Source of the DNA: Gammaproteobacteria bacterium
GTDB lineage: Bacteria; Pseudomonadota; Gammaproteobacteria; GCA-001735895
DNA: 64,000 nucleotides
Reading direction: 5' to 3'
NCBI GenBank assembly: GCA_030066085.1
Contig: JASJCI010000025.1
Coordinates: 62,001-126,000, forward strand
Shown here: positions 44,678 through 48,374 of the stretch, one piece after another
Layout: each line of letters opens with the position of its first letter
How positions within the stretch are numbered: the first letter of the stretch is position 1
Notes under the pieces: model-generated
Told to the model about the DNA's origin: nothing
The model's database searches: none
What the model saw: only the letters and a program-made list of their open reading frames with translations
Position numbers and translations under genes: made by a program

Positions 44678-44754
44678 TGGCGCGCTCGGCGGGATTCGAA
44701 CCCACGACCTTTGGCTTCGGAGGCCAACACTCTATCCAACTGAGCTACGAGCGC
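44678..44754 (-). tRNA. tRNA-Arg (anticodon CCG), CCA encoded
   Basis: Minus strand GCGCTCGTAGCTCAGTTGGATAGAGTGTTGGCCTCCGAAGCCAAAGGTCGTGGGTTCGAATCCCGCCGAGCGCGCCA; acceptor, anticodon and TpsiC stems all pair. Confidence 0.97.
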
Positions 44755-44899
44755 GGAATTCGGTCGCTGGCGACCGCGGCGTGATTGTAAACCATCCGTT
44801 CGTGCTTTAGGTCGCCACGGCAACATTTTTTTGCGAATTGGCGGTATTTCGAGGATAATGCGCAGCGATTTTAGCCCCCTGTTTTCCTGGAGATCCGCA

Positions 44900-45382
44900 G
44901 TGAGTTCCGCGCACGAAGACGATACGCAAGCGAACCTGATGTCGCCGCAAAACGCCACCGTCCTGGTGGGCCTGCTGTTACTGGCGGTCATTGTCGGGGA
45001 AGTGTTGCTGGCGCCGGCCGACGAGGCGGCGATGCCGGTCGAGCCGACCGCGGAAGAAATCGCCATGCGTATCGAACCGGTGGTCTCGCTGGCCGATATG
45101 CGCAGCGTTGCCAGCATGGCCTCGGTATCTGCCGGCAGCGCCAACCAGACGCCCGACCAGATGTACCAGAGTGCCTGTCTCGCCTGCCACACCACCGGTG
45201 CCGCCGGTGCACCGAAGATCGGTGATGCCGGCGACTGGACCGAACGTCTCGGCAAGGGCCTCGACGCGCTGGTCGCCTCCGCGATCAACGGTATCGGTGC
45301 AATGCCGGCACGCGGTGGATCCCAGCTCGACGACGGCCAGATCCGCGCCGTGGTCGAATACATTCTCGATAATTCCAAGTGA
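44900..45382 (+). CDS. Membrane-anchored c-type cytochrome (cytochrome c5-like)
   Basis: YQSACLACHTTGAAGAPKIGDAGDW; GAMPARGG; GTG start at 44900 or ATG upstream at 44858. Confidence 0.9.
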   Translation: MSSAHEDDTQANLMSPQNATVLVGLLLLAVIVGEVLLAPADEAAMPVEPTAEEIAMRIEPVVSLADMRSVASMASVSAGSANQTPDQMYQSACLACHTTGAAGAPKIGDAGDWTERLGKGLDALVASAINGIGAMPARGGSQLDDGQIRAVVEYILDNSK

Positions 45383-47341: not shown

Positions 47342-47372
47342 ATATTAGTATATTAGGGTTCGATAATATAAT
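47342..47372 (+). promoter_or_regulatory. Promoter-like element with direct ATATTAG repeat upstream of TATAAT
   Basis: ATATTAG at 47342-47348 and 47350-47356; TATAAT at 47367-47372. Confidence 0.4.
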
Positions 47373-47409
47373 GGTTCGCGATTTCCAGAATAACGAAGAG
47401 GGCAGAACC

Positions 47410-48093
47410 ATGAACAAGATAAAAGCGATTGCCGCAGTTGTCGCAGTATCGCTGGCGCTCGGCCTGAGTCTTTCCACGCGGGCCGCGGAAGAGCAGCAGG
47501 TCGATCCGGCGGAGCATAAATTCGAACTCGCCAAGCAGTACTACGGTGACTGCAGCGGTGCCGATGACGCCAGGTTCGAGGCGATCCGGCCGCAGCTGAA
47601 GGCGTTTACCGACATGGAGGTCATGGCCGAGTACATGGCCGATCCGAACAAATTCATGCAGCTGATGGCGGTGGTAAACGATCCGCACACCATTCACGTC
47701 ATGACCAAGTGCGCGAGCGAACCGGTCATGTGGGACACCTGGATGCGCGGCATGACGGATTTCAACAAGATGAGTCGGGCGATGACGCACTTCATGAACC
47801 CGAACATGTACTTTGCGTGGATGATGGCGCCGATGAACCCGGCAACCTACCAGCCGATGATGCAGATGGCCGACCCGGCCTACTACACGCGCTGGATGAC
47901 GGCGATGTCGAACCCGGTGTTCTATCAGCCGATGACTTCGATGATGGACCCGAACTGGTACACGCCGCGGATCAACTGGATGACGAATCCGCAGTCGATG
48001 CAGCCAATGTTCAACATGATGAACATGGGCCATTACTACGGTCCCGCGACCGCTGGCGCCACGGCGCCGCAGCAGCCGGCCGAACAACAGTAA
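47410..48093 (+). CDS. Secreted Met/aromatic-rich protein with ten ~13-residue tandem repeats
   Basis: Signal peptide MNKIKAIAAVVAVSLALGLSLSTRA; repeated [D/N]P-x-x-[Y/F/W]-x-x-x-M-x-x-M units encoded at 47641-48024. Confidence 0.85.
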   Translation: MNKIKAIAAVVAVSLALGLSLSTRAAEEQQVDPAEHKFELAKQYYGDCSGADDARFEAIRPQLKAFTDMEVMAEYMADPNKFMQLMAVVNDPHTIHVMTKCASEPVMWDTWMRGMTDFNKMSRAMTHFMNPNMYFAWMMAPMNPATYQPMMQMADPAYYTRWMTAMSNPVFYQPMTSMMDPNWYTPRINWMTNPQSMQPMFNMMNMGHYYGPATAGATAPQQPAEQQ

Positions 48094-48167: not shown

Positions 48168-48374
48168 ATGAAACCCAACATGGGAAACGCGGATCGCATC
48201 ATCCGAGCGCTCGTCGGACTGGCCGCCATCGGCGCCTGGGCGCTGGGACTGTTAGATGGAACGCTCGCGATCGTGAGCCTGGTCGTCGGAATCGTGCTGC
48301 TGGCGACTGCGGCGCTGCGCTGGTGCCCGCCCTACACCCTGCTGGGGATCAATACCGGCGCCTCGCGGGAATAG
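48168..48374 (+). CDS. DUF2892 domain-containing membrane protein
   Basis: MGNADRIIRALVGLAAIGAWALGLLDG ... RWCPPYTLLGINT. Confidence 0.88.
   Translation: MKPNMGNADRIIRALVGLAAIGAWALGLLDGTLAIVSLVVGIVLLATAALRWCPPYTLLGINTGASRE

What the first reader, a model, noticed from the sequence alone, without database searches (positions are those of the whole stretch)
47410..48093. Methionine/aromatic-rich secreted protein made of ten 12-13-residue repeats
After the signal peptide and a short N-terminal domain, the protein reads as consecutive units: DPNKFMQLMAVVN / DPHTIHVMTKCAS / EPVMWDTWMRGMT / DFNKMSRAMTHFM / NPNMYFAWMMAPM / NPATYQPMMQMA / DPAYYTRWMTAMS / NPVFYQPMTSMM / DPNWYTPRINWMT / NPQSMQPMFNMMN. 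The consensus is [D/N]P-x-x-[Y/F/W]-x-x-x-M-x-x-M-x. The period is regular (128 aa, 10 units) and Met density is very high, suggesting a short-period solenoid or metal (Cu/Ag)-binding or oxidant-scavenging surface. I do not recognise a named family.
Basis: partly seen in the sequence, partly recalled or inferred. Interest (0 to 1): 0.8.

Follow-up and report, generated by a model that had tools for sequence, protein, structure and literature searches.

The report
Helical-repeat protein of sulfur-oxidising bacteria
This is a real, conserved, exported protein built from ten short proline-capped helices; it occurs together with two other methionine-rich repeat proteins (some encoded beside sulfur-oxidation genes), so it probably helps sulfur-eating bacteria hold elemental sulfur outside the cytoplasm rather than binding metal.

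Summary
In detail: 47410-48093 (+) encodes a 227-aa exported protein with ten 12-13-residue D/N-P units, and the repeat exceeds chance (25-aa lag, z 5.8). Twenty-two relatives (45-82% identity in the best segment) show a real family, here F1; it matches no Pfam, NCBIfam or PDB entry. AlphaFold places one short helix on each unit (pLDDT about 80 in most), with no known fold.

The metal or oxidant idea is weak: of 26 repeat methionines only 2 are invariant; the rest swap to other hydrophobics, while Trp and Pro are kept.

F1 co-occurs with F2 (nonapeptide MNPxxYxxW repeats) and F3 (hyper-Met, CxxCH motif). F1 and F2 occupy the same six of 271 genera sampled; F3 is in five of them. The three cluster in some genomes, and F2/F3 loci lie beside soxXY, soxYZ, soxB, dsrE2, YeeE/YedE transporters and DUF302 proteins. 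All nine carriers in the sample are Sox and/or reverse-Dsr sulfur oxidisers; 8 of 9 lack soxC.

Best reading: a new sulfur-globule-protein-like coat or scaffold for periplasmic zero-valent sulfur (confidence 0.5). The sulfur link is strong; the exact role is inferred.

The parts
47410..48093 (+). F1 gene: 227-aa exported helical-repeat protein (whole coding sequence with stop)
   Evidence: ORF and translation; 22 relatives; alignment with 35 invariant columns; third-position bias
47410..47484 (+). Sec-type signal peptide, about residues 1-25 (cleavage near TRA/AEE)
   Evidence: Read from the sequence: K-rich start, hydrophobic core, small residues before the cut; same layout in relatives. No signal-peptide predictor was available
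47506..47640 (+). N-terminal cap, residues 33-77, three predicted helices; holds invariant Cys48, whose likely partner is invariant Cys101
   Evidence: AlphaFold helices 33-46, 53-67, 69-77; invariant columns. The disulfide is inferred
47641..47796 (+). Units 1-4 (residues 78-129): DPNKF..., DPHTI..., EPVMW..., DFNKM..., the looser half of the repeat
   Evidence: Helices 79-89, 92-102, 105-116, 118-128; D78P79, D91P92, E104P105, W108, W111, D117 invariant
47797..47871 (+). 25-residue pair A (residues 130-154): NPNMYFAWMMAPM + NPATYQPMMQMA
   Evidence: Lag-25 periodicity; helices 131-138, 144-153
47872..47946 (+). 25-residue pair B (residues 155-179): DPAYYTRWMTAMS + NPVFYQPMTSMM
   Evidence: Lag-25 periodicity; helices 156-167, 169-177
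47947..48024 (+). 26-residue pair C (residues 180-205): DPNWYTPRINWMT + NPQSMQPMFNMMN
   Evidence: Lag-25 periodicity; helices 181-192, 194-203; W183, R187, W190 invariant
48025..48090 (+). C-terminal tail, residues 206-227, probably disordered, variable between relatives
   Evidence: pLDDT below 50 for 210-227; not conserved
48168..48374 (+). Downstream 68-aa membrane protein, YgaP-like TM domain (DUF2892); linked to F1 in the nearest relatives only, part in the system uncertain
   Evidence: Pfam PF11127 E 2.9e-22; downstream homologue in L002, L003, L005-L009, L011, L021

Best explanation
F1 is a periplasmic structural protein of a multi-protein module that handles zero-valent sulfur made by an incomplete Sox system before it is taken up and oxidised by reverse Dsr: a sulfur-globule-protein-like coat or scaffold. 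Proposed mechanism: after Sec export the protein folds as ten short helices, each N-capped by [D/N]-Pro; aromatic residues in nearly every unit and interchangeable Met/Leu/Ala side chains make a hydrophobic, polarisable surface that packs on elemental or polymeric sulfur and against sister repeat proteins F2 (MNPxxYxxW nonapeptides) and F3 (hyper-Met with a CxxCH motif), so that the sulfur stays dispersed and reachable. Shown here: export-type N-terminus, repeat, family, co-occurrence with F2 and F3, restriction in the sample to Sox/reverse-Dsr sulfur oxidisers, sulfur-gene neighbours of F2/F3. Inferred: location on sulfur, contact with F2/F3, the coat function, haem attachment to F3.
For: F1 and F2 are in exactly the same six of 271 genera (chance about 2e-12 if genera were independent); F3 in five of them plus a partial F3-like ORF in the sixth. 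In 21 genomes picked by F1 alone 17 have F2, 12 F3, 18 dsrA. Three dsrA-carrying close kin lack all three. Physical clusters: F1-F2-F2-F3 in G014, F3-F1-F2 in G211, F1-F2 in G087, L018, L020. F2/F3 loci adjoin SoxYZ, SoxXY, SoxB, DsrE2, YeeE/YedE and DUF302 genes. All nine carriers have dsrA and/or soxB, and 8 of 9 lack soxC. Known sulfur globule proteins are exported, domain-less, repetitive and proline-spaced (PMC10386293, PMC7356093), as F1 and F2 are.
Against: No localisation, expression or binding data. Sgp sequences were not at hand, so homology was not tested. The window copy itself sits between comM and DUF2892/ubiK/glnK/amtB, not in a sulfur cluster. Many dsrA-carrying genomes (over 100 of 369) lack the set, so it is not general to sulfur oxidisers, and absence of soxC is also common in dsrA carriers without it. 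Whether these uncultured carriers form globules is unknown.
Confidence: 0.5

Rival explanations
1. F1 is a periplasmic chaperone-like helical hand, working like the Met-rich STI1/DP domains of Sti1, Sgt2 and ubiquilin: short D/N-P-capped amphipathic helices form a flexible groove that holds a hydrophobic client, for example F2, F3 or a Sox or membrane protein in transit.
For: Relative L017 touches STI1-HOP_DP (E 2.2e-4, residues 73-104), L029 weakly. STI1/Sgt2 domains are Met-rich, proline-broken amphipathic helices with a hydrophobic groove (PMC8010706). Met columns keep hydrophobicity, not Met.
Against: Best score 21.5 bits is under the gathering score 29.1 and the window protein has no hit. 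No Foldseek match to any solved STI1 domain. No TPR or Hsp70 partner nearby. Ten units, not five. Restriction to sulfur oxidisers needs an extra reason.
Confidence: 0.15
2. F1 is an accessory of the Sox or electron-transfer machinery: it docks Sox proteins or the CxxCH protein F3 near the membrane and has no contact with bulk sulfur.
For: F2/F3 neighbours are sox genes, DUF302, DsrE2 and a YeeE/YedE transporter; F3 has a CxxCH motif.
Against: Many Sox/Dsr genomes do without the set. Three highly repetitive, hydrophobic proteins are unusual for a docking role; known bulk-sulfur proteins look more like them (PMC10386293).
Confidence: 0.15
3. F1 binds Cu(I)/Ag(I) through methionines, or is a methionine sink for oxidants such as HOCl.
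For: About 17% Met in residues 33-205 with MxxM motifs; F3 is 24-27% Met.
Against: 2 of 26 repeat Met columns invariant, exchanges keep hydrophobicity and not the thioether, Met down to 7-9% in divergent F1 members and 3-8% in four F2 copies of one genome. No copper-system genes recognised in the neighbourhoods read.
Confidence: 0.07
4. F1 is an envelope or surface structural protein (for example adhesive or S-layer-like) whose link to sulfur oxidisers reflects shared habitat and ancestry only.
For: Repetitive aromatic/Pro-rich exported proteins are often structural; most carriers are marine MAGs; the co-occurrence statistics assume independent genera.
Against: The sample's six carrier genera lie in six different families, close kin lack the whole set, and F2/F3 sit inside sulfur gene clusters.
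Confidence: 0.08

Closest known systems
Sulfur globule proteins: SgpA-D of Allochromatium vinosum and the Beggiatoa leptomitoformis envelope protein ALG67575.1 (PMC10386293, PMC7356093)
   Same: Exported to the periplasm, no recognisable domain, repetitive with regularly spaced prolines, in bacteria with Sox and Dsr genes; several such proteins per genome
   Different: F1 has helical 25-residue [D/N]P pairs; SgpD is described with P-X2-P patterns and four RADAR repeats; F1 is larger than SgpA-C (11-13 kDa). Sequence homology untested; location and induction unknown for F1
STI1/DP domains (Sti1/Hop, Sgt2/SGTA, ubiquilin; Pfam PF17830)
   Same: Met-rich, short amphipathic helices broken by D/N-Pro, hydrophobic side chains exchangeable; one relative scores E 2.2e-4
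   Different: Below the family's gathering score, no hit for the window protein, no fold match, periplasmic, ten units instead of five, no TPR partner
Alpha-helical solenoid repeats (TPR, PPR, Pumilio)
   Same: Tandem short helices in pairs
   Different: 25 rather than 34-36 residues per pair; Foldseek hits to designed PPR proteins are insignificant (best E 0.84, TM-score 0.14)
Met-rich periplasmic metal-binding proteins
   Same: Exported, high Met content, MxxM motifs
   Different: Met not conserved as ligand, no copper genes recognised nearby

Membership tests
Sulfur globule proteins (Sgp) | Sec-type export signal | tested here: met
   Read from the sequence and conserved in layout among relatives; no predictor was run
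Sulfur globule proteins (Sgp) | Repetitive, domain-less sequence with regularly spaced prolines | tested here: met
   Lag-13/25 periodicity, Pro at nearly every unit, no Pfam/NCBIfam domain
Sulfur globule proteins (Sgp) | Carried by bacteria whose genes predict stored zero-valent sulfur (Sox without SoxC, reverse Dsr) | tested here: met
   dsrA in 7 of 8 and soxB in 7 of 8 F1 genomes; soxC absent in 8 of 9 F1/F2 carriers. Not specific: shared by many non-carriers
Sulfur globule proteins (Sgp) | Sequence homology to SgpA, B, C or D | not tested
Sulfur globule proteins (Sgp) | Located on the sulfur globule | not testable with these tools
   Needs microscopy or globule proteomics
Sulfur globule proteins (Sgp) | Induced by sulfide or thiosulfate | not testable with these tools
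   No expression data
STI1/DP domain (PF17830) | Score above the Pfam gathering cut-off | tested here: not met
   No hit in the window protein; best relative 21.5 bits against 29.1
STI1/DP domain (PF17830) | Fold match to solved STI1 domains | tested here: not met
   Foldseek against PDB: no match with E below 0.8, none an STI1 domain; the model is only of medium confidence
STI1/DP domain (PF17830) | Hydrophobic groove made of D/N-P-capped amphipathic helices | tested here: inconclusive
   Ten D/N-P-capped helices predicted; no coordinates to test for a groove
Met-rich copper/silver-binding proteins | Conserved Met ligands | tested here: not met
   2 of 26 repeat Met columns invariant; Met down to 7-9% in divergent members
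Met-rich copper/silver-binding proteins | Measured Cu(I)/Ag(I) affinity | not testable with these tools
   Needs purified protein
TPR/PPR-type solenoid | Profile or fold match to a known solenoid family | tested here: not met
   No Pfam hit; Foldseek best E 0.84

The most novel reading that the evidence does not exclude
F1, F2 and F3 together with DUF302, DsrE2 and YeeE/YedE proteins form an undescribed periplasmic sulfur scaffold: a methionine/aromatic protein material with a c-type haem protein that both stores zero-valent sulfur and connects it to electron transfer and import, present as a linked set in unrelated sulfur oxidisers.
Probability: 0.2. Interest if true: 0.9.

Novelty: new variant of a known kind. 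Interest (0 to 1): 0.7.

Why it matters
How sulfur oxidisers hold and mobilise stored sulfur is poorly known: the described globule proteins come mainly from purple sulfur bacteria and Beggiatoa, and this class of protein generally has no marked conserved domain (PMC7356093). Here uncultured, mostly marine sulfur oxidisers, among them the Olavius algarvensis Gamma 3 symbiont, carry three linked families of repeat proteins with clear signatures, so the question can be tested in existing proteomes and by simple localisation. If right, this gives sequence markers for sulfur handling in lineages that had none, and three repeat designs that I found in no library, among them a 9-residue MNPxxYxxW unit and a hyper-methionine protein with a CxxCH motif.

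Tried and rejected
Pfam, NCBIfam and PDB sequence searches with the window protein: nothing; with the family: nothing in PDB, only sub-threshold STI1-HOP_DP and noise in Pfam and NCBIfam. Foldseek of the model against PDB and viral models: no significant match. AlphaFold of F2 was poor (pLDDT 45 with five sequences). Plasmid search: no match. No promoter or terminator pattern around the gene. Literature searches found no described methionine-rich repeat family of sulfur oxidisers; only openly licensed papers are held. Considered and rejected: a gene on the antisense ORF 47353-48087 (-); chance low complexity (22 relatives, third-position bias). Profile comparison of F1 with F2 (probability 92 over 20 columns) shows a shared NPxxY unit, too short to claim common descent.

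Full report
WHAT IS THERE. The gene at 47410-48093 (+) encodes 227 residues: a Sec-type signal peptide (about residues 1-25), a short three-helix cap (33-77), ten 12-13-residue units (78-205) and a probably disordered tail. Autocorrelation of the repeat region against 2000 shuffles gives z=3.4 (lag 12), 4.0 (lag 13) and 5.8 (lag 25), so the clearest period is a 25-residue pair, [D/N]PxxYxxWMxAM followed by NPxxYQPMxxM. The period is kept across the 21 aligned members (mean z 5.25 at lag 13 and 5.34 at lag 25, minimum 2.7).

A REAL FAMILY (F1). A scan of 85,462 species genomes found 22 relatives at 45-82% identity in the best segment, nearly all gammaproteobacterial MAGs, plus the Olavius algarvensis Gamma 3 endosymbiont and one MAG labelled Rhodobacteraceae. 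The alignment has 35 invariant columns, among them Cys48, Cys101, the D/E-P steps of units 1-3, W108, W111, W137, W162, W183, W190, Y172, P174 and R187. Differences fall mostly on third codon positions. There is no match in Pfam, NCBIfam or PDB by sequence.

STRUCTURE. AlphaFold2 with 21 sequences puts one helix on each of the ten units, each starting right after the D/N. Mean pLDDT is 67, about 80 over roughly residues 71-180; pTM 0.52. Foldseek against PDB and viral models finds nothing significant. So the repeat is most likely helical with [D/N]-Pro caps; whether it is an open solenoid or a compact bundle is not settled. One relative (L017) touches the STI1-HOP_DP profile at E 2.2e-4, under the gathering score. 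STI1 domains too are proline-broken, Met-rich helical hands for hydrophobic segments (PMC8010706). I treat this as a likeness in working principle, not membership.

METHIONINE IS NOT THE CONSERVED PART. Of 26 Met columns in the repeat, two are invariant (98, 107). On average Met is kept in 74% of sequences but hydrophobicity in 96%, while Trp is kept in 100%, Pro in 96% and aromatics as a class in 91%. In the two most divergent members Met drops to 7-9% of residues 33-205. This speaks against Met as metal ligand or sacrificial oxidant and for a hydrophobic, aromatic surface.

LINKED FAMILIES. Reading the neighbours of F1 turned up two further exported repeat families. F2 consists of tandem nonapeptides MNPxxYxx[WFM] (z up to 11 at lag 9); it lies beside F1 in L018, L020, G087, G211 and G014. 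The window's own genome has two F2 copies, at C49:31516-32127 (-) and C38:40251-40823 (+). F3 is 24-27% Met in the two sequences used as its model, with an N-terminal CxxCH...ARYQKD block, MMNPMMGM-type repeats and a C-terminal MMDPKQYE...W..MM block; CxxCH suggests but does not prove a c-type haem. F3 of the own genome was matched by its N-terminal part at C49:86938-87180 and read through to its stop at C49:87837.

CO-OCCURRENCE. In an even sample of 369 class genomes F1 is in 8 genomes, 6 of 271 genera; F2 in 7 genomes, exactly the same six genera; F3 in 6 genomes, five of these genera, with a partial F3-like ORF in the sixth (L060:1-261). Identical genus sets by chance: about 2e-12, assuming independent genera, which is optimistic. 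Three close kin of the window's genome (G265 and G361 of its genus, G154 of its family) lack all three families although they carry dsrA, so the set seems to be gained or lost together. In 21 genomes picked by F1 alone, 17 have F2, 12 have F3 and 18 have dsrA. At least two of these MAGs (L015 = G093, L022 = G326) also sit in the class sample, so the replication is not wholly independent.

SULFUR CONTEXT. All eight F1 genomes have dsrA and/or soxB above the curated cut-off, each gene in 7 of 8. dsrA itself is in 115 of 369 genomes; seven or more of eight by chance has p=0.0015. soxC is missing in 8 of the 9 genomes that carry F1 or F2. F2/F3 neighbourhoods are sulfur loci: G014 has YeeE/YedE, F1, F2, F2, F3, DUF302, a small ORF, SoxZ, SoxY; G214 has F2, DUF302, F3, YeeE/YedE, SoxB and, further on, a thioredoxin; G044 and G185 have DsrE2, DUF302, F3, YeeE/YedE; in the window's genome SoxY-SoxX are followed by a DUF302 protein and F3, and F2, soxB, dsrA and F3 share one 99-kb contig. 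Profile-checked were the DUF302 proteins of G000, G014, G214 and G044, DsrE2 of G044 and YeeE/YedE of G014, G214 and G044; the G185 genes are read from their likeness to those of G044. YeeE-like SoxT1A imports sulfur for oxidation in Hyphomicrobium denitrificans (PMC11582611); DUF302, DsrE and YeeE genes are known from other sox clusters (PMC5248467, PMC11034169), with no repeat proteins mentioned in the passages I read.

HOW IT MOST LIKELY WORKS. By established knowledge of the pathway, cells with SoxXYZAB but without SoxCD leave zero-valent sulfur in the periplasm, and reverse Dsr oxidises it later. Known coat proteins of such sulfur (SgpA-D; the Beggiatoa 15-kDa protein) are exported, domain-less, repetitive and proline-spaced (PMC10386293, PMC7356093). 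F1 and F2 share these traits and F3 adds a CxxCH motif. I therefore propose that F1 is part of a periplasmic coat or scaffold for sulfur. Shown: export-type sequence, repeat, family, genetic linkage, genotype of carriers. Inferred: sulfur contact, location and partnership. My confidence in a role in periplasmic sulfur handling of any kind is about 0.75; in the coat or scaffold reading 0.5.

LIMITS. The window copy is not in a sulfur cluster: comM lies upstream, a DUF2892 gene, a ubiK-like gene, glnK and amtB downstream. Most carriers are MAGs of uneven completeness. Sgp sequences could not be compared. Gene names in the clusters beyond the profile-checked ones are my reading of ORF translations. 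The class-level tallies use one evenly drawn sample of 369 genomes; a row absent there is not proof of absence elsewhere.

Noticed in passing
L033:1486-2097 (-) and L034:1486-2061 (+) (own genome, C49 and C38); also in L018, L020, L050, L051, L054-L060: F2: exported proteins of near-perfect nonapeptide repeats MNPxxYxx[WFM], no Pfam or NCBIfam family, in exactly the genera that carry F1.
   Followed up: yes
L074:7417-8337 (+) (own genome C49), L050:13490-14485 (-), L058:11061-11855 (+), L075:8816-9487 (+), L076:7648-8319 (-): F3: hyper-methionine exported protein with a CxxCH motif at its N-terminus and MMNPMMGM-type repeats, in sulfur gene clusters.
   Followed up: yes
L075:7686-8783 (+), L076:8342-9598 (-), L074:6339-7349 (+), L050:14564-15598 (-), L058:9938-11026 (+): DUF302 protein beside F3; in L075 and L076 it carries a long N-terminal MMNPMMGM repeat, in the others a short Met-rich stretch.
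   Followed up: partly
L023 (MAG labelled Rhodobacteraceae): An alphaproteobacterial MAG carries F1, an F2 match (E 6e-31) and dsrA: horizontal transfer or a binning error.
   Followed up: no
L026:2900-3421 (-), same as L050 near 11.4-11.9 kb: Met/Pro-rich exported protein with an LTXXQ/Spy-like domain (Pfam LTXXQ E 2.4e-8) between F1 and F2 in G014.
   Followed up: partly
window 48168-48374 (+): 68-aa YgaP-like membrane protein (DUF2892) downstream of F1, kept in nine further loci of the nearest relatives.
   Followed up: partly
window 44831-45382 (+): Small cytochrome c (Cytochrome_CBB3 profile E 5.2e-17) with an N-terminal hydrophobic stretch.
   Followed up: partly
window 44678-44754 (-): tRNA-Arg (anticodon ccg), the only tRNA gene found in the window.
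   Followed up: no
L008 F1 gene (1147-1812 +): This relative lacks six residues (DMEVMA, window residues 68-73) just before the repeat, a small deletion in an otherwise conserved block.
   Followed up: no
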